From positions 1 through 28,558 of the IMG/VR virus record IMGVR_UViG_3300010391_000054: 28,558 nucleotides of DNA; one strand, written 5' to 3'. The position numbers and the translations under genes are program-made. Every line of letters starts with the position of its first letter. The stretch's first letter is position 1. The notes beneath the pieces are model-generated. The model was not told where the DNA came from, searched no databases, and saw only the letters and a list, made by a program, of their open reading frames with translations. Positions 2,947-27,876 of this stretch are shown here, piece after piece. This DNA comes from a virus.

Positions 2947-5900
2947 CTAGCGAAGCACCTTCCAGTTCAGCGTAACTGCCCCCGGCGTCACCGCATTAGT
3001 CTGATCCTTATTGCACACGTCAAAGTTCACATTGCCAGCGGTCGGATAAGCAACGATGGACAGCGTGCCCGCCGGGGTATATCCGGTCACCGCCTTGATA
3101 CTACCATTCGGCGTGAAGGTTATCGTGTCTGTGGTGGCAACACTAGTAGCCGCAACCGTCACTACCGTAGCGCAGGTATTGGCAGCGATGGAACTGGTAC
3201 CCATGGCCGTGGAGCCGCTGGCCACAGTGTAGCTCATGGGGAATGGCCCGCCGTTGTTGTTGTTCACCAGCCAGCGGTGCAGTGTGCTATCGGCATAGAG
3301 AAGATCATGGCCAGCGGCGGCAGTTAGACTAGCGCCTGTGCCTTCAGTGGCGTCAAGGCCGCCATTAGTGCCGCTGCCGCCAATAATCGAACAGGTAAGC
3401 GCGCCCGCGCCATCGGTTGAGCAGCCGGTGTCCTGCTGGATGAGCTTGCCGGTGGTCGAGTTGAAGATAGCGAGGTGCTTGTCGGTAGCCGACGCTGGCC
3501 CTACAACGTCGCCAGTGCCGGTACCCGCAGCATGGCAAGCTCCATCGGCGCCAAGATACTGGATGCCGCTGCACGATGTAAACAGGGCGATGACATCAGC
3601 CGATGCAGCCGCGCTCAATACCCCCGTAGCGGTAGTGTTCTTGAGTATACCGGTGCTCAAGGAACCGAGAAACTGAGCGCCGCTTAGACCCGAATCGGCT
3701 GTCCCCTGCACAATAAATTTGTTGACGAAGACTACGTTAACGGTCCCGTTCACGCTATTGCCGGCGAGATTGCGGGCAGTGGTCCATCCAGCTGCGGTGC
3801 CGGTCGTGTTCTGGTTAAGAGTGGGGAAATCGCCCGCAACGGCGATGGACAGGACGCCGGTCGAGGTAGTGTTCTTGAGAATGCCGGTGCCCAATGCCCC
3901 AAGGAATTGCGGACCTGAGAGTCCCGCATCTACCGTCCCTTGGACAATGAATTTATTGGCGAAGGCCACGCTAACTGAGCCATCGACGCTGTTCCCTGCA
4001 AGCGCGCGCGCGGTGGTCCATTTGGCGGCGGAGGTGGCAGTATCGGCATTGCCGGTGACATTGCCGGTGACGTTCCCGACTAATGGCCCAGCAAACCCGA
4101 CCGCTGTGGTAGTGCCCAGCACACTGACCTTGAACATATCGGCGTTGGCGGCGGCGTTCTGGAAGCGCAGGAAGTCGCCGGTAGGGGTAGTGTCGGTCGC
4201 GCGCTTGCCGTAGATGGTCTCGTTCGTGTCGGCCAGTTGCGAGGCAGTGAACTGACCAGTGGTCGAGTTGTAGAGCAAATTAGCAGCCCCACCCAGCGCA
4301 GTAGCGTTGTTGTACTGTATCTGCGTGTCCGACCCGCCAGCGGTGGCGGAGGCGGTGATGGCCTGACAACTGAACAGGTGAGTGGTCGTGTCGTAGGCCA
4401 GTGCGTGCGTGGAGTCGCCGCAGTTAGTGATTGCCGTATAGGTAGCGGTATTAGACGCTGTGATGATTGGCACCGTGTTGGTCGAGGGCGATGTGCCGTA
4501 GGCGACGCCGTTGACTTTGACTACCGTCGTAACCATCGCCGAACTGGTCACATCGCCTGACAGACTGCCGGTGAACGTAGCGGCGGTGCCCGAGACGTTG
4601 CCGGTGACGTTGCCAGTGAGCGCGCCCGCGAATCCGGTAGCGGTAAAAATCCCGGTAGAGGGAACGAAGCTGAGCTTGGTCGAGGATATTTTCTGCGGCA
4701 GATTGCCCGTAGTGGCTGTTACCCACGCCGGATACATCGTCGCGGCGGTCGAGGTGTCATCGGTGACCGCGGTATTGGTAGCGTTGGTAGCCGTGCCCGA
4801 CAGCGCGCCGCTGAACGTGGTCGTGGTCAGTGTGCCAGATGATGGATTGAAAGTCAGCTTAGTACTCGATACCTTGGCCGCGAAGTTGCCCCCCACCGTC
4901 GCTGTCCACAGAGGAAACATGCTGGCGTTGGTGGTGGTATCGTCGGCGTTGTTGACGGGTACGGTAATCGCCGCCGAGCCGTTGAAGTTGACTCCGTTGA
5001 TGGCGCGCGTCGTGGCCAGAACCGTCGCCGTGGCAGCGTTGCCGGTAGTGCTGCCGGAGGTGCCACTCACGTTGCCGGTAACATTGCCGGTTAGATTGCC
5101 CGTCACATTCCCCGTCAACGGCCCGCTAAAACCGGTGCAGGTTTCTACCCCTGCTGCAATAGTACAGGCACTCGCGGTCAGGTCTGCCGCACCGCTGCCT
5201 GTTGGAACCGCGTTGGCTGTTGCGTTCAGGTCACCGGTGTGGGTGACCGTGCCAGCACCCGCAGGGTTATCGCAGGTACTATCGAATTTCAGATATCCCG
5301 AACAGGTGCCGCCATTGAAGAGGCCCACTACGTCGGCGGCGGCGGCGAGGCTCAATACCCCTGTGATATTAGTGTTCTTAACGATACCGGTGCCGAGCGA
5401 TCCCAAGAACTGAGAGTCGCTTAGTCCCGCATCGACTGTCCCCTGCACGATTAACTTGTTGGCAAAGACCACGTTGGCGGAACCATCAACCGAGTTGCCA
5501 GCTATGGTTCTCGCAGTCGTCCACTTGGCGGCGGACCCGGTGGTGTCCTGGTTGAACGTCGGCCATGCGGCACCGCCGGATACGGTAATTGCGCCAGCCC
5601 CGTCCATCCGCAGACACTTGGAGCCAACCGCGCAGAACTGGAAGGGCGGATTGTCGCTGTGACCGGAAATTGAACGCAGCAGATATCCGGTAGCCCCCGC
5701 CGCGCCTGCCGTAGACGAAATCGACACTCCCGCAGTGGCCCCGTAATTGGAACTGAAGCTAAACGTCAGAGGCCAGTTGGCCATATCGAACGTCTGCGCG
5801 GCAGTAGGGTTGGTCAGGGAACTGAGACTGGTGGTAGCGCCGGTGTGTGACAACACGTAGGTAACGACGGCGGCCACGCTGGGCACGGTGATATTGGAAG

Positions 5901-6681
5901 GGGACGCGAACGAGCCATCGGTGTCGAGGGTTAAGCCCCATGAAGTTTGCACGGTGCCAGCGCTGGGGGCGGCTGCGATAAGGATGCCGTTAGCCGCTGG
6001 GTCAACGGTGGGCATCAGGATCATAGACGGTGCGCCGGCCGCACCAGCGACGCCGACCGATGCGGAACCACTGCCTGATCCAACCAGCGTGATAGGAGCC
6101 GTGAAGCTAGTGGAACCGTCAGCATTGACGGTTATACCGAGACCGCCGTTAAGGAACGCCAGCGTGTGAACACCCAGATCGAAGCTCTTATTGCCGGTCG
6201 GATTCAAGACCGCATTCAAGGCGGGGCTGCTGGACAAACAGGTAATGACACCGGTGGAGGCCAGCGTGCAATCACCGCTCAGCGAGATCGGCGCGTAAGC
6301 GGCGCCTCCTGCGTTACCGATTAGCAACTGGCCCGCAGTGGGTGCGGTATTGGGCACGATGGCGACGTTGGTTTTGGCGTTAAGCGCGGTCTGCAAGTCG
6401 GTTTGATTGGATAGCGTGCCGGTGATGGAACCCCAGAGGCCACCGCCGCCGATACCGCAGTCAACCGAGGTGACGCCGACGACGCCGGCGCTATTGACGT
6501 GTAGACAGCGGATAGAACCCGTGAACGGCAGAGTGATGGACTGAGTGAAAGTATTGTGGCCGGTGAAAGTCTGGTCAACGTCGAGCGCAGCAGTCGTATG
6601 ACCTTGGCTCCAAGCGACGGATGACAGACTGGCCAGCGCCGCGATGAGCATGAGCAGTTTGAGCGACTTGAGCTTAGGCAC
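2947..6681 (-). CDS. Large repeat-rich tail fibre protein with an N-terminal signal peptide
   Basis: 1244 aa from GTG at 6681, chosen because a GGGGGAGG Shine-Dalgarno precedes it and because the protein then begins with a basic stretch and a hydrophobic core (LLMLIAALASLSSVAWS) that ends like a signal peptide. An ATG at 6774 would overlap the upstream gene and bury that signal. The body is a classic fibre sequence, with runs of GNVTGN, ATKL-like strands and RAINGVNFNGSAAITV. Three ~65-residue repeats carry the pattern AGNSV-DG, NK-IVQGT, QFLG-L-TGI-KNT, TGVLS (DNA about 5345-5530, 3838-4030 and 3600-3797). Two further repeats carry SSTKL-F-PS-G. No C-terminal chaperone or peptidase domain was recognised. 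It is the longest gene in the window and heads the three-gene adhesin cluster. Confidence 0.85.
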   Translation of the reverse strand: MPKLKSLKLLMLIAALASLSSVAWSQGHTTAALDVDQTFTGHNTFTQSITLPFTGSIRCLHVNSAGVVGVTSVDCGIGGGGLWGSITGTLSNQTDLQTALNAKTNVAIVPNTAPTAGQLLIGNAGGAAYAPISLSGDCTLASTGVITCLSSSPALNAVLNPTGNKSFDLGVHTLAFLNGGLGITVNADGSTSFTAPITLVGSGSGSASVGVAGAAGAPSMILMPTVDPAANGILIAAAPSAGTVQTSWGLTLDTDGSFASPSNITVPSVAAVVTYVLSHTGATTSLSSLTNPTAAQTFDMANWPLTFSFSSNYGATAGVSISSTAGAAGATGYLLRSISGHSDNPPFQFCAVGSKCLRMDGAGAITVSGGAAWPTFNQDTTGSAAKWTTARTIAGNSVDGSANVVFANKLIVQGTVDAGLSDSQFLGSLGTGIVKNTNITGVLSLAAAADVVGLFNGGTCSGYLKFDSTCDNPAGAGTVTHTGDLNATANAVPTGSGAADLTASACTIAAGVETCTGFSGPLTGNVTGNLTGNVTGNVSGTSGSTTGNAATATVLATTRAINGVNFNGSAAITVPVNNADDTTTNASMFPLWTATVGGNFAAKVSSTKLTFNPSSGTLTTTTFSGALSGTATNATNTAVTDDTSTAATMYPAWVTATTGNLPQKISSTKLSFVPSTGIFTATGFAGALTGNVTGNVSGTAATFTGSLSGDVTSSAMVTTVVKVNGVAYGTSPSTNTVPIITASNTATYTAITNCGDSTHALAYDTTTHLFSCQAITASATAGGSDTQIQYNNATALGGAANLLYNSTTGQFTASQLADTNETIYGKRATDTTPTGDFLRFQNAAANADMFKVSVLGTTTAVGFAGPLVGNVTGNVTGNADTATSAAKWTTARALAGNSVDGSVSVAFANKFIVQGTVDAGLSGPQFLGALGTGILKNTTSTGVLSIAVAGDFPTLNQNTTGTAAGWTTARNLAGNSVNGTVNVVFVNKFIVQGTADSGLSGAQFLGSLSTGILKNTTATGVLSAAASADVIALFTSCSGIQYLGADGACHAAGTGTGDVVGPASATDKHLAIFNSTTGKLIQQDTGCSTDGAGALTCSIIGGSGTNGGLDATEGTGASLTAAAGHDLLYADSTLHRWLVNNNNGGPFPMSYTVASGSTAMGTSSIAANTCATVVTVAATSVATTDTITFTPNGSIKAVTGYTPAGTLSIVAYPTAGNVNFDVCNKDQTNAVTPGAVTLNWKVLR

Positions 6682-6710
6682 GCGCGCTACCTCCCCCTTG
6701 CCCTCTGGTC

Positions 6711-7337
6711 TTAGGCTTCCGAACACGCCACAGTGTAGCCATCGTTGCTGTTGCTGGCACCACCCAGTATCCATAGTTCCGAGGTCAGCAGCGGGTTACC
6801 GGCGCTGTACTCGGTGGCGGTCCATGATTGGGGTTGTGCGGCGCTGGATACCTTAGCCAGCTTGACAATGCGGCGATAAGTGGCGGTCATCAGCGGAGAA
6901 TCACCGATGTAAGCCCACGTGCCGGCGGTGCCGTCCTCCATCTGCACGAAGATGCCGTTGACGGAGCGGTGCAGCGCGATGAACGTGCCGGTGCCGAACG
7001 CGCCGGAGATATGCGTGTTGAGGGTGACCGGGTTATTGACGCCCCCAGGTGATCCCTGCTGCTGGCCGAGCGTGAGCTGATTGCCGCCAGGGAGTGCGGA
7101 GATACGCGCCGGTTCACCATGCGTGTTATCCGGGTCGATGAGCCACACCACATCGCCGACACGGAACAGCGCTTCAGCGTCATAGACGGTGGAGTCTCCG
7201 GCACAGATCGTGCCCAAGGTGACGGTGATGGGTACGGATGCGGGCGCGCCGATACCAGCAGTGATGAAGCTCCCCATCAGTGGTTGAGGTACGGTCGTAC
7301 TCTGAATATGCATCAATGCCGTGGTTCTAAAAGCCAT
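6711..7337 (-). CDS. Phage structural protein of unknown function (208 aa)
   Basis: 208 aa from ATG at 7337. A GGAGG (7344-7348) lies 6 bases upstream, which favours this ATG over the in-frame GTG immediately before it. The sequence is soluble and beta-rich, with phrases such as VGDVVWLIDPDN and SVNGIFVQMEDGTAGTWAYIG, and has no membrane segment or recognised motif. It sits between small virion-type genes and the long fibre gene, so a baseplate or tail-completion protein is plausible. The start overlaps the stop of the 52-aa gene upstream (TGATG). The stop at 6711 leaves 29 bases to the fibre start, enough for that gene's ribosome-binding site. Confidence 0.75.
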   Translation of the reverse strand: MAFRTTALMHIQSTTVPQPLMGSFITAGIGAPASVPITVTLGTICAGDSTVYDAEALFRVGDVVWLIDPDNTHGEPARISALPGGNQLTLGQQQGSPGGVNNPVTLNTHISGAFGTGTFIALHRSVNGIFVQMEDGTAGTWAYIGDSPLMTATYRRIVKLAKVSSAAQPQSWTATEYSAGNPLLTSELWILGGASNSNDGYTVACSEA

Positions 7338-7954: not shown

Positions 7955-8389
7955 TTAATGATTGATCGGGTTCGGCGCTGATGCCAGAGTTTTGTTCGCC
8001 GACGCCGCTACCCCTGCCGAGACCCCACCGGGATTTTTGTACGCCGCTGGATCACGATTGAACTTGCGCTTGTAATCGCGCGTGATATCTCCGGCACCGG
8101 GTTCGTGCCGCGGTGGCTTATCGGCACGGCCACCATCGTCGCTCGCCACCGCCAGCGCGACATTGTGTTCCTTCTCCACCCGGCGCAACTCGGCCTGCGA
8201 GTTGATGGTGATGGGCTTGCCGTCGCGACCGCGCACGTGCTGCAAGGTAAAGTTCTGGTACGGATTTTTGGCCGGAGTCACGTTGTTCGATGGCCGACAC
8301 ACTTGGCAATACTCACGCGGCTCGCCGCAGTTGTTAAACACCACCACGCCGCGTGGGCCTTCGTAGCCGCATTGAACACAATGAATCAT
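7955..8389 (-). CDS. Zinc-ribbon-like small protein (144 aa)
   Basis: 144 aa from ATG at 8389, one base after the TGA of the connector candidate (TGACATG). The N-terminus holds two CxxC pairs, CVQC at residues 4-7 and CQVC at 28-31, with a further Cys between them, consistent with a small Zn-binding ribbon. The remainder is hydrophilic and probably extended, with a helix around QAELRRVEKEHNVALAV and a low-complexity C-terminus rich in Ala, Asn and Pro. The function is unknown. Several phages carry such a protein near head-tail connector genes, but I cannot name the family. Confidence 0.75.
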   Translation of the reverse strand: MIHCVQCGYEGPRGVVVFNNCGEPREYCQVCRPSNNVTPAKNPYQNFTLQHVRGRDGKPITINSQAELRRVEKEHNVALAVASDDGGRADKPPRHEPGAGDITRDYKRKFNRDPAAYKNPGGVSAGVAASANKTLASAPNPINH

Positions 8390-8390: not shown

Positions 8391-9419
8391 TCAGTAGTCG
8401 TCCCCGCTAGCCATCGTCGCCGTCATCGCCGCCAAGAACCCGCCGCCGCCGATGTGACCGGTGTACGGGTCGATCATCGGCAACTGTTCCCACTGAGTCA
8501 CGATATCTTGGCGATACAAATTTTCGTCGGCCTGCGCGGCGGACTGAATTTCCATCTCGAATTCCTTGCGCTTCTCCCCTGCGATGGTAACGCAGGTCGC
8601 CTCCGAGTAGTTAGGGTTAGATTTCGGGCGATAGAGCAGTACGTCGGCGATGGCACGGGCCTTGACGATGTCGGCGCGGATATACGGCGGCAGGTTGTCA
8701 CGATCATCGCTCAAGTTCGGCGGCTGCACATACGCGAGGTAAGGCAGCGCCATCTGCGTGTTGGGCGACGGCCATAGCTCAATCTGATAGTTGCCGTCAC
8801 GGTCGGGCGGCATGGTGGCGGCGACGCGCGGGTACAGCATCTGGATTCGCGCCGGGTCGATATTCTCGATGAGAGCTTGCGGGACGTTGGTACACATACG
8901 GTACATCAACTGGAGGTTCTTCATCGAGAGAAAGTACTTGATATTGGGGAACGAGTAATAGTACTTGGTGATGAAATATCCCGAGTAGGTGAAAGTAGGC
9001 AACCCCCACGGGAATTCCATAGTCAGCACTTGACGCACCTGATCAAAGCCGGTGATGGTAAGGATAGGCGAGGTGAACCCGACACGTAGTTGCTGGCCAA
9101 CAATGGGTTGCCCACCGATTGATGCCGTCCAGTTGGTGTCGATACCCTGCACGGTATTTGAGCCAAGCACTAGATTTATGACGCCGCGCGAATAGTAGCC
9201 GGGGGTAACGATCTGGCCTTTGGTTAGCAGCCCATACCATGTTCTCCGATCCAGGTATGCACGCAGCGCATTGTTTATAAAATTGCCAACGAGGGGAGAC
9301 CCCATACCCGTATGGTAAGAACCAACTTCACCTATTAACTGTCCAAAATTTTGCTGGTTGACATACGGCTGATTTCCACTCGGGGTAATCTGTCCGGTAA
9401 TGGTCGAGGGGACAGGCAT
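8391..9419 (-). CDS. Virion structural protein, candidate head-tail connector/adaptor
   Basis: 342 aa from ATG at 9419 (start MPVPSTITGQITPSG). An upstream in-frame ATG at 9464 would lie inside the endonuclease gene, whose TGA ends one base before this ATG. Recognisable elements are ALRAYLDRRTWYGLL (residues ~50-65), then a beta-rich segment with GIDTNWT and VGQQLRVGF, then ELWPSPN and LPPYIRADIVKARAIADVLLY, and near the end DENLYRQDI. This layout recurs in phage proteins between the capsid and fibre genes that I take to be head-tail connectors. That call rests on remembered pattern, not a database match. The original upstream context may have been altered by insertion of the HNH gene. Confidence 0.6.
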   Translation of the reverse strand: MPVPSTITGQITPSGNQPYVNQQNFGQLIGEVGSYHTGMGSPLVGNFINNALRAYLDRRTWYGLLTKGQIVTPGYYSRGVINLVLGSNTVQGIDTNWTASIGGQPIVGQQLRVGFTSPILTITGFDQVRQVLTMEFPWGLPTFTYSGYFITKYYYSFPNIKYFLSMKNLQLMYRMCTNVPQALIENIDPARIQMLYPRVAATMPPDRDGNYQIELWPSPNTQMALPYLAYVQPPNLSDDRDNLPPYIRADIVKARAIADVLLYRPKSNPNYSEATCVTIAGEKRKEFEMEIQSAAQADENLYRQDIVTQWEQLPMIDPYTGHIGGGGFLAAMTATMASGDDY

Positions 9420-9420
9420 A

Positions 9421-11365: not shown

Positions 11366-11430
11366 GACGTTTTCTCCAAACTTCAGTTTATCGTTCCAGC
11401 AAACGTCGCTGGGATATCTGCACGCGGATT

Positions 11431-12426: not shown

Positions 12427-12445
12427 GACCGTCTCCTCGTCAACA

Positions 12446-12472
12446 ATGTCGTATCACGACATGCGCGATACG
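12446..12472 (-). promoter_or_regulatory. Mutually exclusive hairpins in the capsid gene leader
   Basis: Twenty bases upstream of the capsid ATG there is a perfect 7-bp hairpin with a 3-nt loop (ATGTCGT GAT ACGACAT, 12446-12462). A second perfect 6-bp pairing, CGTATC with GATACG (12450-12455 and 12467-12472), shares the inner bases, so both cannot form at once. The Shine-Dalgarno lies just after the first hairpin. Translational or operator control is possible. The function is inferred. Confidence 0.4.
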
Positions 12473-12488
12473 TGAAACTTTTAGCGAG

Positions 12489-13976: not shown

Positions 13977-14038
13977 ACGGAACCGGTCGAGGATAGATAT
14001 CACCTCCGAACGGCTAAACTCTCCACCACCGGTTCCGT
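13977..14038. repeat. Perfect 11-bp inverted repeat (ACGGAACCGGT / ACCGGTTCCGT)
   Basis: Arms at 13977-13987 and 14028-14038 enclose a 40-base loop that contains a GATATC. The element lies in the untranslated stretch before the 78-aa gene. It could form a stem in mRNA or bind a dimeric protein. No poly-T follows on either strand, so it is not a standard terminator. Confidence 0.7.
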
Positions 14039-14120: not shown

Positions 14121-14434
14121 AGTTAGCGGCCTCCTTTCCCCGAGATATCTCTATTCGGGTGCTGATGAGCGATTGGGTCTGAATCTCCGGCTCAATTTAT
14201 CCGCTCACCGAGGGGCGCGACGTTGATGCCAGTCGCACCGTCTAGGGCCAGCATCCAGACTTTTATATTTATTGTCAACTTATAGACAGAAAAATCTTTG
14301 GGTGGAATTGAGGCGAGGTACAATTGTTGGGTTAGGAAACGTCAGCCAGCGCTCCCTAACCCTGCATAAACCGAGGCAATAGAGGTGCCCCAACCATGCG
14401 TTCCGGTAAGCATACAGCAGCATGGAAGATAAGC
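14121..14434. other. 314-bp gap without a convincing gene, with AT-rich tract and inverted repeats
   Basis: No ORF with a ribosome-binding site was found. On the minus strand it holds, in order, an 8-bp inverted repeat GGGTTAGG/CCTAACCC (14329-14336, 14355-14362, 18-nt loop), an AT-rich stretch with a perfect -35-like TTGACA (14273-14278) but no good -10 at 16-18 bases, and a perfect 10-bp palindrome GAGATATCTC (14142-14151) next to the Shine-Dalgarno of the 18-codon ORF. It is a plausible leader or promoter region for the capsid genes. Confidence 0.5.
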
Positions 14435-17431: not shown

Positions 17432-17446
17432 CACCGCTCCCATCCG

Positions 17447-17956: not shown

Positions 17957-17980
17957 CGGAGGTGATATCCTTCGGCGGTA

Positions 17981-18009
17981 AATATACCCGCAGATATCTC
18001 AACGGTCAA
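17981..18009 (-). promoter_or_regulatory. Sigma70-type promoter for the portal/head operon
   Basis: On the minus strand TTGACC (18004-18009) and TATATT (17981-17986) are separated by exactly 17 bases, an excellent match to -35 and -10 consensus. The predicted start near 17974 would give an ~18-base leader before the ATG at 17956. The spacer holds one GATATC (17993-17998) and the leader a second (17964-17969). The promoter lies in the only gap between the terminase/HNH block and the head genes. Confidence 0.7.
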
Positions 18010-18019
18010 CATATTTGTT

Positions 18020-18655
18020 CTATCGCTGTCTAGCGAGAGATCGTTTCCTCCGTGCACACCGCTTGTAATCCTTGACCAGCTTGGGAGTCGTCAGAGCTTT
18101 TTCCACACTCCATCCGCGAGCAAAACGGGCCAATAGAGTGTGGCTAGCAATGCCTACAATTCTAGCCCACTGACGTAAGGAATGAGACTCTCCTCTCCAC
18201 CGCAACAGCATGAATTTACCGCCGCGTGGCCCCGGAGGGGTCGTCAAAGATTTACGCGCACTCCAACCCAAGTCCAATCTCTGCGCTACAGTGCTGTCAA
18301 CCAACCCGAGTTTCTGAACAGCGGGAGTTTCCAGCCACGCCACCATCGGCATTTCTCGCCCATTCAATTTGATTACGCGGTTGTGGCGCGTATTTCGCAT
18401 CTGCTGTTTACGAGTCACCCAACGACAATTCTCAGGACTGTAGCCACGCCCCCTTAGATTATTATTGCGACGATCTAGAAGCAATCCGCGCTTATATCCG
18501 TGGCTCAACGCCCACTTGACGAAGTTGGAAGATATCATCCACTCCCGGCATATCTTGATGCCCCTTCCACCGTAACGGACATAACTGACATGGTTCGGAT
18601 TGAGGCATCTACCTTTCATCCCGTCCCAAACCCGATAAACGGGCAGGGAACTCAT
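18020..18655 (-). CDS. Free-standing HNH/AP2-type homing endonuclease
   Basis: 211 aa from ATG at 18655, preceded by GGAAAGGA. An upstream ATG at 18691 would overlap the terminase end. The N-terminal half has the sequence order of AP2/HNH phage endonucleases: PVYRVWDGMKGRCLNPNH, YVRYGGRGIKICREWM, FVKWALSHGYKRGLLLDRRNNN and YSPENCRWVTRKQQ. The usual IDR(I/R)DN motif appears as LDRRNNN. The C-terminal half contains two helix-turn-helix-like repeats, each ending GWSxxKSLTTP or GWSVEKALTTP, likely DNA-recognition modules. It sits directly behind the large terminase gene, a typical insertion place for homing endonucleases. AP2-domain proteins bind DNA; cleavage here is inferred from family resemblance. 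Confidence 0.85.
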   Translation of the reverse strand: MSSLPVYRVWDGMKGRCLNPNHVSYVRYGGRGIKICREWMISSNFVKWALSHGYKRGLLLDRRNNNLRGRGYSPENCRWVTRKQQMRNTRHNRVIKLNGREMPMVAWLETPAVQKLGLVDSTVAQRLDLGWSARKSLTTPPGPRGGKFMLLRWRGESHSLRQWARIVGIASHTLLARFARGWSVEKALTTPKLVKDYKRCARRKRSLARQR

Positions 18656-18668
18656 ACAATCCTTTCCG

Positions 18669-20867
18669 TTATTCTTCTTCGTATCCGTCATAATGCCTAT
18701 GAACTAGGATATCTCGATAGGCTTGTACGATATCTGGGGTGATATGCTTAGAATCCATGCCTTGTCGGTACAGTTGCCCTTCAGCGCTTTGAGGGGCATC
18801 GAAAATCGGTGACCACGGCGTATTGGCCTTTTGCACTACAACCGGAACGATGCGCCAAGGCAACTTCATCTTGTATTTGGCCTCTAACTTGGCGATCAAG
18901 ACTTTTCCCGCATCTTCACTATCCACATCCTCTACCATCCTACCATAATGGTCATAGATAGTAAACCGTAGCGGGGCTTTCGGCATCACTCCGCCTGCCG
19001 TGGAGGAGTTCGCGCCCGTGCCCATCGCCATACGGTCAGTGAGTTCGGCGCGCTTGCCGCCTTGGTGAGAGGCGCAGATGCAGATGATATTGGCCATCAC
19101 CGCATCGTCGTCGTTCTCGATACCCGCCGCCTTGGTCTCGTCCTCGTAGCGCCCGAAGTCGCGCATCTCCTCGATCGTGTGCTTGTTGCGGATAACGATG
19201 GTATGGTCCAGCAGCCGTTCGGCCATGCGGTTAATGGCGTCGTCGCGGGTCTGCGCGTTGGTGACCCAGTGAGTGTGCTGGGTAATGGTGTTGGATATTT
19301 TGTCCATCCTTTTCCAGCGGTACAGATTCGGGAAGTCGATCACCCACTGTAGATCATTGGCGGTGGTGATGCCGTCGCGGGCATACTCGACCGCCACCTC
19401 ACAGTCGTTGTACCAGTGAGCAATAGCGGCGACCACACGGGAGAGGTGAGCGGGACTCATGTGCCCGTGCCACTCGCAGACCTGCGTGTCGGGTTCGGCA
19501 CCGTAACCCAAGCGGTAGACGGCGATATCAGAGAAGTCGTCGTCGTCGCCGGGGCCACCGACATCACAGCCTAGATAGTATTCGTCCATGGAGCCGTCGC
19601 GGGGATATTCCCAAACCCAGAAGCGGTTATTCCACGCCGGCTTGTCCATCAACTCGTCGAGTGTAGGTTGGTGCAAGTGGAGTATCGGCGGCGCATCCAT
19701 AGATACGTATTCGATTTCGCCGACCGCGATGGGGTCGATGCAGTTCTCGCGCTGCTGGCGGTTCAATTCCTTGCGCGGGAAGGCGCAAAATCCCGATGAG
19801 ATAAACGCCTCTCCGCTCGTACAGGGGTAACTTTCGTAGTGGTCGTCCTCGGCACCGGTTGCCGATACCGCGCTGACGATTTTACGCCGCCGCCACTTGA
19901 AGAACCCCAGCGGTATCTGGAATTTTTCCTTTACCGCAACCGCCCTGCGTAACGCCCCCTCCTCTTCGGTCAGCGCCATGGTCTCGCCCGCGCGCAGGGG
20001 AACGAAATGTTTCTTCACCTTGTAGGCGGGTATGAATATCGGCGTCCACTCGGACTTGCCCGACTCCGCCGCCTGCCACATATTGTAGAACAGCCCAGTG
20101 CGCCCATAGGCGGTGGACTCCATGATGGCGAGGATGTCGCGTGCGTTCATCGAGGGTTCGATATCCGCGGTCCACACCGATGAATCAGGCCACCTTGAAA
20201 CTTCACTAAAATGGCCAGAGCGCAAGGTGCGACCGATCGCCACGCCGGTAGCCTTCTGCGCATTCGATACGATGAGCGTGGAACCCAGTCCCGGATCAAC
20301 GATGCGCCGACCCTCATCCGAACGCTGAAAAATAATGTGGAGACCCTGCTGCTTAGACAGGTACTCGGGTTTGAGCCACCATGGCAGCGCGTGGTAGGCG
20401 TCCATCATGCGGTTGAACATTTCCAGCGACACGCGGTCGTCCTGCGCCATGGACAGCGAGTAGGCTTGCGGGACGAAGATGGTGTCGTGGAAGATGAGCG
20501 CGGCGGTCCACGTGGTGCCGCCGGACTGGCGCGGCTTCAAGATGATGCCTTGGAAGCACCCGTCGCGGTCCCAGCCGGATTGGACGGCTTCGTAGATTAT
20601 TTCCTGATGCGACCAGAACGGATAGAGGGTCTGGACTACGCCGTTCTCGTTGCGGATGACGTGGTAGTTCTCCATGTAGTAGCGGCGGTCGGTGATGCAG
20701 CGCTCGATTTCTAGGTCGATAAAGGCGAGTTCGTCCGAGTGGAGAGAGTCCCACGCGCGGGGAAGGGCTTCAAGTTCGGTCTTGGAAATGTTCTGGGCGG
20801 AGATGAACTTATCGTCGAGGGCTTCGATGGCGTCGTTGAGACTAGCGTCCTTTCTACTTACCCGCAC
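18669..20867 (-). CDS. terL: Terminase large subunit (packaging ATPase/nuclease)
   Basis: 732 aa from GTG at 20867, three bases after the TGA of the small-subunit candidate (an overlapping ATG runs into a stop). The ATPase has Walker A LKPRQSGGTTW (110-120), a Walker-B-like HFSEVSRW (219-226) and the coupling segment MESTAYGRTGLFY (249-261). The RNase-H-like nuclease has its first Asp in YYLGCDVGG (D435), then CEVAVEYARDG and ENDDDAVMA. Both halves look intact. The protein is longer than many TerL (450-650 aa); about 100 extra C-terminal residues follow the nuclease (from about LTDRMAMGTG on). It docks on the portal and cuts concatemers. Gene order TerS-TerL-portal is standard. Confidence 0.93.
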   Translation of the reverse strand: MRVSRKDASLNDAIEALDDKFISAQNISKTELEALPRAWDSLHSDELAFIDLEIERCITDRRYYMENYHVIRNENGVVQTLYPFWSHQEIIYEAVQSGWDRDGCFQGIILKPRQSGGTTWTAALIFHDTIFVPQAYSLSMAQDDRVSLEMFNRMMDAYHALPWWLKPEYLSKQQGLHIIFQRSDEGRRIVDPGLGSTLIVSNAQKATGVAIGRTLRSGHFSEVSRWPDSSVWTADIEPSMNARDILAIMESTAYGRTGLFYNMWQAAESGKSEWTPIFIPAYKVKKHFVPLRAGETMALTEEEGALRRAVAVKEKFQIPLGFFKWRRRKIVSAVSATGAEDDHYESYPCTSGEAFISSGFCAFPRKELNRQQRENCIDPIAVGEIEYVSMDAPPILHLHQPTLDELMDKPAWNNRFWVWEYPRDGSMDEYYLGCDVGGPGDDDDFSDIAVYRLGYGAEPDTQVCEWHGHMSPAHLSRVVAAIAHWYNDCEVAVEYARDGITTANDLQWVIDFPNLYRWKRMDKISNTITQHTHWVTNAQTRDDAINRMAERLLDHTIVIRNKHTIEEMRDFGRYEDETKAAGIENDDDAVMANIICICASHQGGKRAELTDRMAMGTGANSSTAGGVMPKAPLRFTIYDHYGRMVEDVDSEDAGKVLIAKLEAKYKMKLPWRIVPVVVQKANTPWSPIFDAPQSAEGQLYRQGMDSKHITPDIVQAYRDILVHRHYDGYEEE

Positions 20868-20870
20868 ATA

Positions 20871-21419
20871 TCACCCGGATATCTCTTCAAACTCCACATC
20901 CTCCGCCGCGACCTGCGTAGGCTTGTTCATGCCCAACTGCTCGCGCTTCTCGCGCACGCGGGACTCGAACGACCTGCCCGCACCCGCACCCGGCGCATTG
21001 TTGATCCCGATATTGACCTGCGCGCCCGACGCCGGCGCCTTGACGCTCTCGACCATAGTGGCAGTGGCGCGCACCGCATCAATCCGCGTAGCGTGATCGG
21101 GTTCGTACACTGCCGCCCGCGTGACTTCGCCGGTCTGCGGGTTGCTGAGTTCGGGCAGCGCTACCCGCCTAGCCCGCTGTCCCTCGACCAGAGTTTTACC
21201 GATCGGGGCGACCGCGATAATGACCTGCTCATGGATGGCGGTCTCGACCATCTCGCGGGAATTGCTGGCCATCCAGCGCTCGACCTGCATGACGCCGGCC
21301 TCGACCATGGCCAACTCCGCGTTCATCAGCGCGGCGATATCTTCGGGTGACCGCCCGGCGCGCTTGAGAGCCCAGCAATGGCGGTCGAACGGCGTAACCG
21401 CGACCTTACCGTTACTCAC
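20871..21419 (-). CDS. Terminase small subunit candidate (182 aa)
   Basis: 182 aa from GTG at 21419 (VSNGKVAVTPFDRHC). This start overlaps the stop of the preceding gene (GTGAGTAA) and removes a spurious N-terminal extension that would run antiphase over the membrane-protein gene. The N-terminal half contains a helix-turn-helix-like segment (WALKRAGRSPEDIAALMN, then VQVERWMASN-like residues). The middle helix (ETAIHEQVIIAVAPIGKTL) could oligomerise. The C-terminus is low-complexity and ends acidic (VAAEDVEFEEISG), a tail that small terminases often use to contact TerL. It lies immediately before terL. Small terminases diverge strongly, so the call rests on position and architecture. Confidence 0.65.
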   Translation of the reverse strand: MSNGKVAVTPFDRHCWALKRAGRSPEDIAALMNAELAMVEAGVMQVERWMASNSREMVETAIHEQVIIAVAPIGKTLVEGQRARRVALPELSNPQTGEVTRAAVYEPDHATRIDAVRATATMVESVKAPASGAQVNIGINNAPGAGAGRSFESRVREKREQLGMNKPTQVAAEDVEFEEISG

Positions 21420-21891
21420 CGCCCTCGCCTTCGCCAGCGAGTTCTGCGCGGTCCTGAGCGGCTGTACGACCATAGCCGATGTGCCGTTCGCCGGTTTCGG
21501 GAGCAAAGGCTTCGGGGGCGAGATTGGTTTCCCGCGTGGCCTGGAGCGCGTCTTCCGATAGGAGGGCGCGGGCGAGCTCACCGATAGCGATTGCAGCGGT
21601 TTCAATCCTGCGTGCGGCGTTGATCGCTTCGAGGGATGCGGTTTGGAGTTTTTCACCGTTGATTTTGCCAACCGAAGCCTCCATGGCGATCCGGTGCGAC
21701 TCAAGCGTAGTACCAATTTCATTGCGTAGCAAGGACAAGTCGTGGATGGTGGCTTGGTTGGCGGCGACGGCAGAGTCCAGGAGTTTGCGCAGACGGTAAC
21801 CATCGTAGGCCAGATATCCGGCCATGGCGATCAGGCAGACGATGAACGCACCCAACAATAGTGAAAGCGCGACAATTCCCAAAGTGTTCAT
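21412..21891 (-). CDS. Membrane-anchored coiled-coil protein (159 aa)
   Basis: 159 aa from ATG at 21891, with AAGGCGG upstream. One N-terminal transmembrane helix (residues 4-29, LGIVALSLLLGAFIVCLIAMAGYLAY) is followed by a short basic stretch (DGYRLRK) and a long helical, coiled-coil-like region (LLDSAVAANQATIHDLSLLRNEIG to AINAARRIETAAIAIGELARALLSED). The C-terminal ~35 residues are acidic and low complexity, ending EGEGGE. The topology resembles phage inner-membrane accessory or spanin-like proteins, but no partner outer spanin or endolysin is visible in the window. It may instead tether the packaging or HerA machinery. The function is undetermined. Confidence 0.75.
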   Translation of the reverse strand: MNTLGIVALSLLLGAFIVCLIAMAGYLAYDGYRLRKLLDSAVAANQATIHDLSLLRNEIGTTLESHRIAMEASVGKINGEKLQTASLEAINAARRIETAAIAIGELARALLSEDALQATRETNLAPEAFAPETGERHIGYGRTAAQDRAELAGEGEGGE

Positions 21892-21893
21892 AT

Positions 21894-22061
21894 TTATCCG
21901 CCTTGACCACGATCAATCAATAGCTGCTTTATGTACTCGAAAAAGATCACCGCCGAGTCCGGGTCCGGAAATTGGACTATCACCCGGTGAATGTCATCCG
22001 GCGCGTAGAAGTCGGTGCCCGCCGGGAACAAATTGGCGGGTGCGGGAGTCGATTCGGTCAC
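21894..22061 (-). CDS. Small protein of 55 aa between the ATPase and the membrane protein
   Basis: GTG at 22061 overlaps the TGA of the ATPase gene (GTGA), and the TAA at 21894-21896 lies two bases before the next ATG, so the frame exactly fills the gap. It reads VTESTPAPANLFPAGTDFY, then APDDIHRVIVQFPDPDS, AVIFFEYIKQLLIDRGQGG. The second half looks like a beta-strand plus amphipathic helix. No family was recognised. The end-to-end fit is the main support. Confidence 0.65.
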   Translation of the reverse strand: MTESTPAPANLFPAGTDFYAPDDIHRVIVQFPDPDSAVIFFEYIKQLLIDRGQGG

Positions 22062-24817
22062 AGGAATAGCGTATCCTTGTTCGCTCGCACCTGACCTCCA
22101 TCTGTCACGATCAGCCTCGCCGTGCGCAAATCCGACAGGTAGGTAGTGAACGTCCCCGACTTGGACATCCCCGACTTATCGACCAGTTCCTCGCGCGACA
22201 TAGGCTCTCCTCCCGCCGCTACCAGCACATCCAGCATACGGCATGCGCCCTCGCGCAACTTAGGTTTCCACACCGCCAGCACCCCATCGGTAGTGCTCGG
22301 CGCGTCGGGCACATTACCACCAAAATACTCGACTCCGGCATCGGTCGCGTACACCAGTCCGTCACCGCGCTGCTCCATGTATCCACCCATACGCAGGTCG
22401 GACAGATAGGTGGTGAAGGTGCCGGACTTTTTCATGCCGGCATGGGAGCGCATCTGGCCCAACATCATGCCGTTAGGTTGCCACTGGACCAGCGCCGCCA
22501 GCATACGCTCGGCACCTGCGCGGAGTTTAGTGCTGGTGCCATTGTCCTGCTCAGGCTTTGACTGTACCCGCTCGGCCGTGCGCTGGATATTCGACAGACG
22601 CGGACCCGACTCGCGGCGTTCGCGCGGACTCGGCACCATCGCGGGTTCAGACTTGATCTCGGGCACTATCGCTGTGATGCGCGGCACGACAATAGCGCTC
22701 AAGATACCTGCGGCTTTCTTCATCGCGTCATGGCATTGCCGCAGTACCCTATCCGCTGCCCGCAGCCTGTCGTTGGCCTCGCGCGATGCCTGATGTATGG
22801 CACGCTCTACCGCGCGCTGATCGACGGCCTTGATCTCGACCGTGCGCGTCTCCGGCGGACGGGACTTGAGTTGTGACTTCAACTCTCGGATTTCGCGCCG
22901 CATCTCCGACTCGGTACGCGCCTTGTCCTCCGCTTCCTTGGGCAGATCCGCCAGCTTCGGTAGCAGCGCCTTGATCTGGTGGGGCGGCGGCGGAGGCTCG
23001 AACTTCTGCGCGCCGCTGCCGATCTCCGGGTGCGTGGTCTCCACTCCGCCCACTCGGATAAGCACCCGGTCGGTAGTGATCGCCCGCCCAATGGCGTAGA
23101 AGTTACCCGGCTCCAATACCCGTAGACCCTTTTTGAACTCGTGCTTCTCGTCCTTGCTGACGCTCAACAACTCGACCGCGCGGTCGATGTCCACATCCTC
23201 AAAGGTCAGCCCGACCATGCGGTTCAATAGCTCTGCGCTGGCGTCCTTATCGAGCTTAGCCAGCCGCTGCGTCGCCCATACCGCGCAGAACGCACGCTTC
23301 CGCCCGGTCGTGGCCAAGGAGATCATCGCCTCCTTGCAGCGCATGATATCGGCGCGCTCCTGCGAACTCCCCGCCCGCGGCATTTCCTGGGGGCAGTTGC
23401 CAGTCACAAACACCTTACCGTTGCGTCGAGCAACAAAAGCCCCCGTAGGCACCGTGATATCCCACACCTTTCCACTGTAATTCTCATTGAACGGGTGGCG
23501 AATATAGTGGTGTCTACGGCGGGATATATAGATCACCCACTGACCGTTCTGGGGTACACGCTTCTTAGTTCCACTCACTCCTAAGCGAACACAGAGTTCT
23601 TGGAAATCATCTGCCAGCTTCTCGTTCAATCCGGCGTAGAAGGTAATCCATCCGTTTTTATTGGCAGTTCCATCACCTTCCAACATTCCATCAAATAGAG
23701 ACTGTAACTGCTCACGGGAACCGTGTTGAAGGAGATATCTAGGTATGCGGTGAATACTTTCCGAATCCAAACTCTGCCGCACACGCCGAGACAGTTCGCT
23801 TCCGAAATACCAACGAATGGCCGGATTTTTCCCTTTACGGTTTCTATCCGAACGGGTTCTGCCTCCGAATTGAGTGAGTAACTCATCCAAGACGGTAGTC
23901 ATACGACGCCCACGCTTCGTCGTCGCACATGCCTGTTCGATGGCGATGTACTGATAGCGTCGATCACAAACGAAACCGTCCGTTATCACCCAACCGATCA
24001 ATCGGCAGAAAGCCGCCGATAAGGTACAGACGCTACCGTGGCTATACGGCCCTTCACCGAGAGGAATGAATACGTGATTGGGAACAGCATCGGCTCGACA
24101 AAAAACGGGGGGGTACACTTTGTACCGCCCTTGCGCCCGTTGGGTTCTCTGTAACACAACGCGATGCTCGGGGGTGGATAGGCAATCTATGCCATCACTT
24201 TTTAACCGCACCATCTGGCCCGTATACTTCCGAACGATTAAGCGCTCAACCTTACCCCACCGATATTGTCCACTCGCCATATCGTAGCAAAGAGCTTGGT
24301 CGCTGTACTTGTCGATTTCTCGATACCGTTTCCATCCAGCGAACGTGAGAAGTTCAGTGTCCTCCGAAAGACAGAACTTGTGTGACTCGTCCACGATCAC
24401 CAGCACCGGATGCCACAGGGTCTTGGGAGCGTCAACGAGCGATTCCAGAAACGCGGCCACCCAAGCGCGGCGCTGACTGGGGGATTTGCGAAACGCCTCG
24501 TAGATATCGCACACAGCCGAAGCGCGGATTTCCAGCAGCCGTTGCGCCAGAAGCCCGGCCGACCGCGTATCCGCCGGGGTCTCGCCGCCCTGACCGACGA
24601 GCACAAATCCGAATTTCTCGCGCAGACTGGCGAACTCCCCTTCCGGGTCGATAACGATGATCTGGACCTTACCGAATGCTTGTTCGCATAGCCGACGGAT
24701 AGCCCAGGATTTGCCGCCACCCGAGTTGGACTGGACCAGCAGCCGCGTGCGTAGGAGCACGTCAAGGTCGATGGAGACGTTGCGCACGCCGCATTTGCCG
24801 ATAACGATCTTACTCAT
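22058..24817 (-). CDS. HerA/FtsK-like ATPase precursor with intein and tandem winged-helix domains
   Basis: 919 aa as encoded; 593 aa without the intein (residues 149-474). Walker A is QSNSGGGKSW (29-38), the RecA-like strand IIVIDPEGEF is at 53-62, and Walker B is VLVIVDESHKF (138-148). The intein begins directly after this. Past the splice point come TTGRKR (arginine-finger-like) and CAVWATQRLAKLDKD, typical of DUF87/HerA ATPases that translocate DNA as hexamers. A coiled-coil segment follows (PKEAEDKARTESEMRREIREL). The C-terminus has two winged-helix-like repeats (residues ~765-834 and 854-919) that share KSGTFTTYLSDLR. It lies just upstream of the terminase genes. Its role could be in replication, recombination or DNA segregation; none is proven. 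The start overlaps the 54-aa gene (ATGAGTAA). Confidence 0.85.
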   Translation of the reverse strand: MSKIVIGKCGVRNVSIDLDVLLRTRLLVQSNSGGGKSWAIRRLCEQAFGKVQIIVIDPEGEFASLREKFGFVLVGQGGETPADTRSAGLLAQRLLEIRASAVCDIYEAFRKSPSQRRAWVAAFLESLVDAPKTLWHPVLVIVDESHKFCLSEDTELLTFAGWKRYREIDKYSDQALCYDMASGQYRWGKVERLIVRKYTGQMVRLKSDGIDCLSTPEHRVVLQRTQRAQGRYKVYPPVFCRADAVPNHVFIPLGEGPYSHGSVCTLSAAFCRLIGWVITDGFVCDRRYQYIAIEQACATTKRGRRMTTVLDELLTQFGGRTRSDRNRKGKNPAIRWYFGSELSRRVRQSLDSESIHRIPRYLLQHGSREQLQSLFDGMLEGDGTANKNGWITFYAGLNEKLADDFQELCVRLGVSGTKKRVPQNGQWVIYISRRRHHYIRHPFNENYSGKVWDITVPTGAFVARRNGKVFVTGNCPQEMPRAGSSQERADIMRCKEAMISLATTGRKRAFCAVWATQRLAKLDKDASAELLNRMVGLTFEDVDIDRAVELLSVSKDEKHEFKKGLRVLEPGNFYAIGRAITTDRVLIRVGGVETTHPEIGSGAQKFEPPPPPHQIKALLPKLADLPKEAEDKARTESEMRREIRELKSQLKSRPPETRTVEIKAVDQRAVERAIHQASREANDRLRAADRVLRQCHDAMKKAAGILSAIVVPRITAIVPEIKSEPAMVPSPRERRESGPRLSNIQRTAERVQSKPEQDNGTSTKLRAGAERMLAALVQWQPNGMMLGQMRSHAGMKKSGTFTTYLSDLRMGGYMEQRGDGLVYATDAGVEYFGGNVPDAPSTTDGVLAVWKPKLREGACRMLDVLVAAGGEPMSREELVDKSGMSKSGTFTTYLSDLRTARLIVTDGGQVRANKDTLFL
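23396..24373 (-). mobile_element. LAGLIDADG intein inserted right after Walker B of the ATPase
   Basis: 326 codons in frame. Block A starts CLSEDTELLTFAGWKRYREI. Block B is STPEHRVVL (66-74). The LAGLIDADG motifs are LIGWVITDGF (125-134) and LFDGMLEGDGT (226-236). The C-terminal blocks are VWDITVPTGAFVARRNGK and VFVTGN, followed by extein Cys. Asp in ITDG and EGDG suggest an active endonuclease. As in the portal intein, the penultimate residue is Gly rather than His. Splicing would join DESHKF to CPQEMP and restore the ATPase site. Confidence 0.95.
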
Positions 24818-24979: not shown

Positions 24980-25510
24980 TCACCACCGTCCCCGCTTCAT
25001 CAGCCGCCTGACCTTGCGCTCGATCATCGAACGCTTGAGACTGGATATCCGATGCACGATCAATTCACCCGCAAGGTGATCGCACTCGTGCATGATCACC
25101 CGTGCCAGCAACCCGTCCGCCGTGCGCTGCTGCCACGCTCCGTTCAAGTCCTGATACCGCACGGTCACCGATGCCGGTCTTGTCACCAGAGCGCGGAACC
25201 CCGGCAGACTCAGACAACCTTCCTGCCCAGACTGCTTACCCTCAACCGCAATGATCGTCGGGTTGATGAGCGCCAGTTTCCCGCCCCCGCTCTTGCCCGC
25301 GCCCGTGTCGATAACCGCCAGCCGGATGCCCATGCCGATCTGCGGCGCCGCCAACCCGACGCCATTGACGGAGTACAACGTCGCGTACATATCGTCTATC
25401 ATCGCCGCCAGCCGACCGTTGAACTCGGTGACATCAGCCGCAGCGGTAGTGAGCACCGCATCCCGTTGCCAGCGCAGGATCGGGTAAATCATCGGATACC
25501 GTAAACTCAC
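24980..25510 (-). CDS. def: Peptide deformylase
   Basis: 176 aa from GTG at 25510, which overlaps the preceding stop (GTGA) and has GGAGG 7 bases upstream. All three deformylase motifs are present: GVGLAAPQIG (50-59), EGCLS (97-101, metal-ligand Cys99) and HECDH (141-145, two His ligands and catalytic Glu142). The length and the N-terminal YPILRWQRDAVLTTAA resemble bacterial enzymes, which remove the formyl group from nascent peptides at the ribosome exit. The C-terminus is strongly basic (SSLKRSMIERKVRRLMKRGRW) and may contact the ribosome. Phage-borne deformylases are known, notably in cyanophages, where they are thought to aid turnover or synthesis of host or phage proteins. The function here is inferred from complete motifs. 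Confidence 0.93.
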   Translation of the reverse strand: MSLRYPMIYPILRWQRDAVLTTAAADVTEFNGRLAAMIDDMYATLYSVNGVGLAAPQIGMGIRLAVIDTGAGKSGGGKLALINPTIIAVEGKQSGQEGCLSLPGFRALVTRPASVTVRYQDLNGAWQQRTADGLLARVIMHECDHLAGELIVHRISSLKRSMIERKVRRLMKRGRW

Positions 25511-26003: not shown

Positions 26004-26303
26004 TTACCCTCTCTCTCGCGTCCGCTCCATCACCCGCTCGCCTTGCCGTTTTCTGGTCTCACCATCGCAGAACCCGGCGATATCTCGCAGGTACCGGGCA
26101 TCGAGCGCCAGCCTGAGCGCATCGTTGGGCTTGAACAGATACCCACGCCCATGCCTGCACCATTCCACGCGCCCCAGCCGGATACGCAGAGCGCCCAGGC
26201 CACGACCGGTAACCGATATCACATCCCATACGCGAGTGCGTCGGGAGCGGGCGGTGATGACCTGCTGGAATTCCAGCCAACTTACCGATGATTTCGCCAT
26301 CAT
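26004..26303 (-). CDS. Small basic protein of 99 aa, unknown function
   Basis: 99 aa from ATG at 26303, which overlaps the thyX stop (ATGA). It is Arg rich. A beta-like N-terminus (FQQVITARSRRTRVWDVISVTGRG) leads to GYLFKPNDALRLALDARYLRDIAGF and a highly charged tail (ETRKRQGERVMERTRERG). It could bind nucleic acid, but no motif is recognised. An alternative start one codon later is equally possible. Confidence 0.65.
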   Translation of the reverse strand: MMAKSSVSWLEFQQVITARSRRTRVWDVISVTGRGLGALRIRLGRVEWCRHGRGYLFKPNDALRLALDARYLRDIAGFCDGETRKRQGERVMERTRERG

Positions 26304-27418: not shown

Positions 27419-27876
27419 TACGACTTCTCCCCGCGCGATCCGGTAATACCACGCTGGTGCTGATATCTCCCCGCATATTTGGTGGTAGGCCCAGTCAGCC
27501 TGGCAAATATCAGATGCGCGAACGGCTCACCCAGCGGGATTTTCATCTCCGCGAACGCAGCGATCTCCAGCGTCAGGTTGCCCTCAGACCCGGCATCCAC
27601 CACCGTCGGCGGCAGGATCAGCCCCGAGCGTGCCCACGTGGACCGCAACTCGACGAAGGCCATCAGGTCGTCGGGCATACTGATGATCTCGCGCGTGCAC
27701 GCCAAGTAAAACTCGCCCTTCGCGAACCGCACGGCATACATCCCCGTGTCTCCTTGCTTAACCTGATCCAATATCAGGTCTATGCCGTTCTGCTGGAACT
27801 GCGCGGACATGACCGGGGCGATGGATAGCTTGCCCTGCTCGATATACCACTGGATATCGCGACCTGTCAGTATCAT
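27418..27876 (-). CDS. dcd: dCTP deaminase family protein (Dcd/dUTPase superfamily)
   Basis: 152 aa from ATG at 27876, with AGGTGAT upstream. It starts MILTGRDIQWYIEQGKL as Dcd proteins do (MILxDRDI), has GIDLIL where the family has YDLRLG, then ELRSTWARSGL (77-86; family RSSxAR) and LTLEI with the catalytic Glu104, and ends YAGRYQHQRGIT like the Dcd C-terminal KYxGQxGPT. The enzyme deaminates dCTP to dUTP, or in bifunctional members to dUMP. It is shorter than the usual 180-195 aa. dUMP made here would feed ThyX. Whether it is mono- or bifunctional, or a dUTPase, cannot be told by eye. Confidence 0.88.
   Translation of the reverse strand: MILTGRDIQWYIEQGKLSIAPVMSAQFQQNGIDLILDQVKQGDTGMYAVRFAKGEFYLACTREIISMPDDLMAFVELRSTWARSGLILPPTVVDAGSEGNLTLEIAAFAEMKIPLGEPFAHLIFARLTGPTTKYAGRYQHQRGITGSRGEKS

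What the first reader, a model, noticed from the sequence alone, without database searches (positions are those of the whole stretch)
5292..27860. About seven-fold excess of the palindrome GATATC
By hand I find 30 GATATC sites, first bases at 5292, 5682, 8084, 8502, 11413, 13996, 14144, 14592, 15612, 16274, 16838, 17964, 17993, 18531, 18708, 18729, 19524, 20160, 20878, 21336, 21813, 23345, 23456, 23734, 24503, 25044, 26079, 26215, 27462 and 27855. At ~60 percent GC about 4 are expected. In genes they occur in all three phases: Asp-Ile (14), ATA-TC with the rare Ile codon ATA (6) and x-TAT-C (5). Five lie in the small non-coding fraction, two at the head promoter. None occurs in the first 5.3 kb, the fibre genes. 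The phase independence argues for selection on DNA. Possibilities are a modification or protection site, a regulator or packaging site, or a host-genome signature like HIP1. Phages usually avoid palindromes.
Basis: partly seen in the sequence, partly recalled or inferred. Interest (0 to 1): 0.72.

Follow-up and report, generated by a model that had tools for sequence, protein, structure and literature searches.

The report
Phage-wide repeated operator-like DNA palindrome
A phage genome fragment carries many more copies of the short DNA palindrome (A/G)GATATC(T/C) than chance or its protein code explains, and comparison with relatives suggests these are docking sites for a phage-encoded gene-control protein rather than a DNA-modification mark.

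Summary
The excess is real. All 30 GATATC sites are present (the last at 27853, not 27855), and GATATC is the most over-represented 6-mer in the window. "Seven-fold" is a composition-only figure: a null that keeps proteins and codon usage gives 8.8 in genes (25 seen, 0/300 shuffles); between genes 0.4 are expected (5 seen).

The motif is longer: purine-GATATC-pyrimidine. In the closest relatives (contigs G001 and G009, probably two halves of one genome) AGATATCT occurs 22 times against 0.9 expected. It is 7.6-fold denser between genes. In the window it sits in the 17-bp spacer of the best sigma70-like promoter found.

In G009 and in another relative, G002, tandem AGATATCT pairs precede the promoters of homologous small genes. 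At that same locus other relatives encode ribbon-helix-helix (RHH) proteins. Two relatives have other palindromes there (CGTTAACG-like, CGTATACG), each matching the top 8-mer palindrome of its own genome.

Best reading: operators of a phage-encoded, probably RHH, regulator whose specificity changes between relatives. Binding is untested, the window lacks the regulator gene, and the role of in-gene sites is unknown.

The parts
17981..18009 (-). sigma70-like promoter TTGACC-N17-TATATT with AGATATCT in its spacer, upstream of gene 17447-17956
   Evidence: only 10/12 match in 11300-21900, but the number of weaker promoter-like matches equals that of shuffles
17992..17999 (.). AGATATCT, putative operator inside the promoter spacer
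17964..17969 (.). GATATC 8 bp upstream of the start of gene 17447-17956; second site of that promoter region
14143..14150 (.). AGATATCT, intergenic, upstream of a basic 18-codon micro-ORF; G001 has AGATATCT (1393-1400) before the matching micro-ORF
23733..23740 (.). AGATATCT inside gene 22058-24817
13996..14001 (.). GATATC, intergenic, 18 bp upstream of gene 13709-13978
11413..11418 (.). GGATATCT, intergenic, 48 bp upstream of gene 10709-11365
20878..20883 (.). GGATATCT, ATA phase, 11 bp upstream of the terminase gene start
18708..18713 (.). GGATATCT within the terminase 3' end, upstream of the HNH gene; 21 bp from the next site
18729..18734 (.). cGATATCt, partner of 18708
5292..5297 (.). AGATATCC in gene 2947-6774 (TAT phase)
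5682..5687 (.). AGATATCC in gene 2947-6774 (TAT phase)
15612..15617 (.). GGATATCT in the portal gene (ATA phase); kept in G001 and G002
21813..21818 (.). AGATATCC in gene 21412-21891
25044..25049 (.). GGATATCC in the peptide deformylase gene
8084..8089 (.). GATATC, in gene 7955-8389
8502..8507 (.). GATATC, in gene 8391-9464
14592..14597 (.). GATATC, in the portal gene (ATA phase)
16274..16279 (.). GATATC, in the portal gene
16838..16843 (.). GATATC, in the portal gene
18531..18536 (.). GATATC, in the HNH gene (ATA phase)
19524..19529 (.). GATATC, in the terminase gene
20160..20165 (.). GATATC, in the terminase gene; kept in G001 and G002
21336..21341 (.). GATATC, in gene 20871-21506
23345..23350 (.). 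GATATC, in gene 22058-24817; kept in G001
23456..23461 (.). GATATC, in gene 22058-24817
24503..24508 (.). GATATC, in gene 22058-24817
26079..26084 (.). GATATC, in gene 26004-26303
26215..26220 (.). GATATC, in gene 26004-26303 (ATA phase)
27462..27467 (.). GATATC, in the dCTP deaminase-like gene (TAT phase)
27853..27858 (.). GATATC, in the dCTP deaminase-like gene, near its start (reader gave 27855)

Best explanation
The GATATC excess marks dispersed binding sites (consensus (A>G)GATATC(T>C), best site AGATATCT) of a phage-encoded transcription regulator, most likely a small ribbon-helix-helix (RHH) protein that controls its own promoter. A dimer would bind one 8-bp palindrome and neighbouring dimers would cooperate at tandem pairs 10-15 bp apart. 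Sites in or next to sigma70-like promoters would switch phage genes; the sites within genes may act like stoperators or as a weak-affinity reservoir. Shown here: the statistical excess, the flank preference, the intergenic clustering, tandem pairs in front of homologous small genes in two relatives, and other palindromes at the same locus in other relatives. Inferred: that the small protein is RHH, that it binds these sites, the direction of regulation, and that the window's phage carries such a gene outside the fragment.
For: Codon-preserving null: 25 vs 8.8 in genes, 5 vs 0.36 between genes. Flank preference R-GATATC-Y; YGATATCR in the window 3 vs 3.3, no excess. AGATATCT 22 vs 0.94 in G001+G009, top of 256 8-mer palindromes. 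16 of 29 AGATATCT intergenic in 14% of the DNA, p=2e-7; 13 of 29 within 100 bp upstream of a start, p=1e-5. Window AGATATCT in the spacer of TTGACC-N17-TATATT. Tandem AGATATCT before the promoter of homologous small genes in G009 and G002. Proteins at the same locus in G015 and G003 pass the RHH_1 cut-off. G012 and G014 have other palindromes in that promoter, and CGTTAACG (6 vs 0.32) and CGTATACG (6 vs 1.5) are the top 8-mer palindromes of those genomes. With that promoter left out, the promoter word ranks 1, 1, 2, 4 and 14 of 64 intergenic palindromes in G001+G009, G012, G014, G002 and G015.
Against: No binding data. The regulator gene is not in the window. G009, G002 and G014 proteins give no Pfam RHH hit; the G009 model has pLDDT 65 and no significant Foldseek match. 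G015 has the gene and one GATATC in its promoter but no genome-wide excess; G003 has the gene but no palindrome there. Many sites lie inside genes, and in G001+G009 even YGATATCR is in excess in genes (17 vs 8.4). GTATAC is in excess in G021 and G004 without a found regulator. The link to TTGAC boxes for GATATC over the whole G001+G009 genome is not significant.
Confidence: 0.55

Rival explanations
1. Operators of a phage regulator of another family, such as the Cro/CI-type HTH_3 protein of G001 (42199-42468), with the same logic of dispersed sites.
For: HTH_3 at E 2e-11; palindromic operators are usual for Cro/CI proteins (own knowledge).
Against: No AGATATCT in front of that gene; the tandem pairs sit before the other small gene in two relatives.
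Confidence: 0.17
2. Host-genome signature like HIP1: the phage copies a word that is iterated in its host's chromosome.
For: Sites occur in all reading phases and at random spacing.
Against: Most relatives lack the excess; AGATATCT is 7.6-fold denser between genes and clusters upstream of starts; tandem pairs.
Confidence: 0.12
3. Methylation or protection site of a phage or host DNA methyltransferase (GATATC is the EcoRV site).
For: The core is a typical type II palindrome; several other palindromes are avoided in the window.
Against: No DNA methyltransferase family among most G001/G009 genes; the A/T flank preference and placement in and near promoters are not expected.
Confidence: 0.08
4. 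Codon and dipeptide effect: frequent Asp-Ile encoded GAT-ATC.
For: 14 of 30 sites are in-frame GAT-ATC, and 7.4 of these are expected.
Against: Out-of-frame sites 11 vs 1.4, intergenic 5 vs 0.36; the total exceeds all 300 codon shuffles.
Confidence: 0.03

Closest known systems
Stoperators and immunity repressors of Cluster A mycobacteriophages L5/Bxb1 (PMC6550527, PMC9283540)
   Same: Tens of copies of a short word over one phage genome, some inside promoters, most elsewhere; the word differs between related phages together with the regulator.
   Different: Stoperators are asymmetric 13-bp sites mostly in one orientation, bound by an immunity repressor of temperate phages; here the site is an 8-bp palindrome, the candidate is RHH-like, and no integrase was recognised in the relatives' genes scanned.
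SPBRE elements and master repressor MrpR of Bacillus prophage SPbeta (PMC10516654)
   Same: A repeated word found by sequence analysis in intergenic regions of one phage, later shown to be bound by a phage-encoded repressor.
   Different: SPBRE is 15 bp and MrpR has a tyrosine-recombinase fold.
MetJ/Arc/CopG ribbon-helix-helix repressors (own knowledge)
   Same: Small proteins that bind short tandem (near-)palindromic boxes; MetJ boxes (AGACGTCT) resemble AGATATCT.
   Different: Known ones serve one or a few promoters rather than dozens of sites over a phage genome; membership of the G009/G002 protein is not proven.
HIP1 of cyanobacteria (own knowledge)
   Same: A highly iterated palindrome found in all reading phases.
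   Different: HIP1 is a chromosomal signature; here the word is confined to a small phage clade and denser between genes.

Membership tests
Dispersed phage operator / stoperator system | Many copies of one word over a phage genome beyond chance | tested here: met
   30 GATATC in the window, 22 AGATATCT in G001+G009 vs 0.94
Dispersed phage operator / stoperator system | Some sites inside promoters | tested here: met
   window 17981-18009; tandem pairs before promoters in G009 and G002; by consensus match only
Dispersed phage operator / stoperator system | Word differs between relatives together with the regulator | tested here: inconclusive
   fits G001+G009, G012 and G014, not G015 or G003
L5-type stoperators (strict sense) | Asymmetric sites in one orientation | tested here: not met
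   the site is a palindrome
L5-type stoperators (strict sense) | Temperate phage with an immunity repressor that stops elongation at the sites | not testable with these tools
   no integrase recognised in the relatives' genes scanned; function needs experiments
Ribbon-helix-helix regulators (candidate protein) | Match to the RHH_1 family | tested here: inconclusive
   G015 and G003 pass the cut-off, G012 below it, G009, G002 and G014 no hit
Ribbon-helix-helix regulators (candidate protein) | Beta-alpha-alpha fold | tested here: inconclusive
   G009 model beta-alpha-alpha at pLDDT 65, no significant Foldseek match; G002 single-sequence model poor
Ribbon-helix-helix regulators (candidate protein) | Binds the operator word | not testable with these tools
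   needs EMSA or DAP-seq
Methyltransferase (modification) site | A DNA methyltransferase in the phage | tested here: not met
   none recognised by Pfam in most G001/G009 genes; a missed or host enzyme is not excluded
HIP1-like host signature | Same excess in the host chromosome | not tested
   host unknown; two bacterial genome scans found no relative

The most novel reading that the evidence does not exclude
A family of phages with SU10-like portal genes carries, at one fixed locus, a small RHH regulator gene whose operator palindrome is scattered over the whole phage genome, and regulator and genome-wide word have switched together several times (RGATATCY, CGTTAACG, CGTATACG) among relatives whose capsid proteins are about 80-90% identical.
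Probability: 0.35. Interest if true: 0.7.

Novelty: new variant of a known kind. Interest (0 to 1): 0.5.

Why it matters
If right, a plain word count in uncultivated phage contigs leads to an unannotated regulator and its binding word. It would show a dispersed-operator system like mycobacteriophage stoperators in a separate group of phages, apparently with a different protein fold and with fast change of specificity. That would be a natural series for studying how a regulator and dozens of its sites change together.

Tried and rejected
Composition or codon artefact: rejected by codon shuffles. Conversion of near-neighbour words (Vsr-like repair): one-mismatch words are not depleted overall. 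Position kept by descent: only 3 of 5 alignable window sites are kept in G001 and 2 of 6 in G002 (any 6-mer 15-16%), too few to judge. Absence from the fibre genes: only 1.2 sites expected there. Regular spacing: gaps look random (CV about 0.95). Host through relatives in bacterial genomes: none in two scans; no tRNAs in the window or the four relatives scanned. Locus L292, fetched as a relative of the anchor gene, is a false hit in another frame. A scan for further homologues of the small regulator-like gene found only G009 and G002 themselves. Foldseek was uninformative. Paper searches for over-represented or methylated GATATC gave nothing relevant by title and abstract.
Full report
WHAT WAS CHECKED. 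All 30 GATATC sites are in the window, with one coordinate off by two bases. GATATC ranks first of all 6-mers by second-order z-score. Expectation is 4.6 (composition), 5.6 (first-order Markov) and 8.4 (second-order). Shuffling synonymous codons across the window, which keeps every protein and the codon usage, gives 8.8 in genes against 25 observed (0/300): GAT-ATC 14 vs 7.4, TAT phase 5 vs 0.7, ATA phase 6 vs 0.7; between genes 5 vs 0.36 by composition. So about nine sites are ordinary and about twenty need an explanation.

WHAT THE WINDOW IS. It is a virus record of 28.6 kb with a portal matching the SU10 portal family (PF23899), a major head protein (phrog_9953), a terminase with distant phage relatives, two ORFs with LAGLIDADG domains, HNH endonucleases, peptide deformylase, ThyX and a dCTP deaminase-like protein. 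No phage record in the collection matches at DNA level. Related contigs were found by capsid protein and terminase. The closest are G009 (93% capsid identity over the part present) and G001 (terminase 69%), two contigs of one metagenome that look like one genome split near the capsid gene; next is G002 (91% capsid).

THE MOTIF IS LONGER THAN GATATC. Out-of-frame and intergenic sites prefer A, then G, before GATATC (both strands pooled): window A16 G9 T6 C1, G001 A29 G7 C4 T2, G009 A17 G9 C6 T2. In window genes RGATATCY is 8 vs 1.1 expected while YGATATCR is 3 vs 3.3. In G001+G009 AGATATCT occurs 22 times against 0.94, by far the top 8-mer palindrome. One caution: in G001+G009 genes the YGATATCR class is also in excess (17 vs 8.4), so the core alone has some weight there.

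WHO HAS IT. The GATATC excess is strong in the window, G001 and G009, weaker in G002, marginal in G003, and absent in G012, G004, G007, G008 and most of about 40 other relatives, some of them short pieces. AGATATCT occurs 0-2 times in each of 18 larger contigs of the wider family.

WHERE THE SITES LIE. Over window+G001+G009+G002, 16 of 29 AGATATCT are intergenic (14% of the DNA; p=2e-7) and 13 of 29 lie within 100 bp upstream of a start (12%; p=1e-5). Gene calls outside the window come from a simple caller written here and miss some genes. In the window AGATATCT fills the spacer of TTGACC-N17-TATATT (17981-18009), the only 10/12 sigma70 match in 10.6 kb, although the number of promoter-like matches there is what shuffles give. 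AGATATCT at 14143-14150 precedes an 18-codon basic micro-ORF, and G001 has AGATATCT before the matching micro-ORF.

A CANDIDATE REGULATOR. In G009 two AGATATCT 15 bp apart lie just upstream of TTGACA-N18-TATAAC and a gene for an 82-residue protein; in G002 two AGATATCT 11 bp apart lie upstream of TTGACA-N18-TAACAT and a 72-residue homologue (44% identity over 32 residues, E 5e-8 for the single comparison). The gene just upstream serves as an anchor and is found in nine contigs of the family. At the same place G015 and G003 encode RHH_1 proteins over the Pfam cut-off and G012 one below it; the G009, G002 and G014 proteins are not recognised. The G009 model is beta-alpha-alpha at pLDDT 65, Foldseek gives nothing significant, and the G002 single-sequence model is poor. 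Profile comparison of G009/G002 with G015/G003/G012 gives a weak local match (E 0.005, probability 7%). RHH membership of the G009/G002 protein is therefore likely but unproven.

SPECIFICITY SEEMS TO SWITCH WITH THE GENE. At the same locus the promoter holds CGTTAACA plus CGTTTACA in G012 and CGTATACC plus CGTATACG in G014. CGTTAACG (6 vs 0.32) and CGTATACG (6 vs 1.5) are the top 8-mer palindromes of those genomes, and 4/6 and 5/6 of them are intergenic. In G014, GTATAC lies in the spacer after TTGAC 5 times against 0.7. With the regulator promoter itself left out, the promoter word ranks 1 (G001+G009), 1 (G012), 2 (G014), 4 (G002) and 14 (G015) of 64 intergenic palindromes; the G014 promoter holds three palindromes, so its rank is the most generous. 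G015 (no excess), G003 (no palindrome) and three phages with another gene at that place (G016, G017, G020) are not explained. Two other relatives have a GTATAC excess (G021 18 vs 3.1; G004 11 vs 1.8) without a found regulator.

MECHANISM. The best-supported reading is a phage-encoded regulator with dispersed operators. Sites in a promoter spacer should repress; sites just upstream of the -35 box could activate or repress. Sites in genes may act as stoperators or as a reservoir; nothing here decides. The nearest known systems are the stoperators of Cluster A mycobacteriophages, with phage-specific words (PMC6550527), and SPBRE/MrpR of SPbeta, where a repeated word found in silico was shown 24 years later to be the site of the master repressor (PMC10516654).

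RIVALS. No DNA methyltransferase was recognised in most of the G001/G009 genes. A host signature fits poorly with the small clade and the promoter bias but is untested, because no host is known. A Cro/CI-type HTH_3 protein in G001 is the main alternative regulator.

Noticed in passing
window 14064-14120 (-); G001 ending near 1358 (-); G002 within 14301-15000: A conserved micro-ORF for a very basic peptide (MARGRKRRGKKGRKHGRK in the window, MARGKKRRHGRRKKSRK in G001, MARGKGRKKGKRGKGRKHGRK in G002) between the portal and scaffold-side genes.
   Followed up: partly
L122 2970-12301; L106 34-1510; L157 928-1936 (contigs IMGVR_UViG_3300020334_000028 and 3300020340_000001): In apparently unrelated phage contigs the tandem element AGATATCT-NN-AGATATCT repeats, in several cases immediately before the Shine-Dalgarno sequence of a gene (17 AGATATCT in the 62-kb contig, all before 12 kb); it could also form an RNA hairpin. 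A small protein in L122 (5208-5450, -) looks RHH-like by eye but has no Pfam hit.
   Followed up: partly
window 14435-17374 and 22058-24817: The portal gene and a HerA-like (DUF87) ATPase gene each contain a LAGLIDADG domain that looks like an intein or homing insertion.
   Followed up: no
window 9421-10089 and 18020-18691: Two HNH endonuclease genes sit between structural and terminase genes, probably homing elements.
   Followed up: no
window, whole: ATCGAT, CATATG, GGATCC, GTCGAC, GACGTC and ACGCGT are absent although about 6 to 13 of each are expected, which looks like restriction avoidance.
   Followed up: no
G019 (record of L218, 94.6 kb): CGGCCG occurs 140 times against 51 and CAACGTTG 12 against 2.3, another strong palindrome excess in a distant relative.
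   Followed up: no
G021 (record of L204, 48.7 kb); G004/G005: GTATAC/CGTATACG excess (G021 18 vs 3.1 and 6 vs 0.43) without a found regulator gene.
   Followed up: partly
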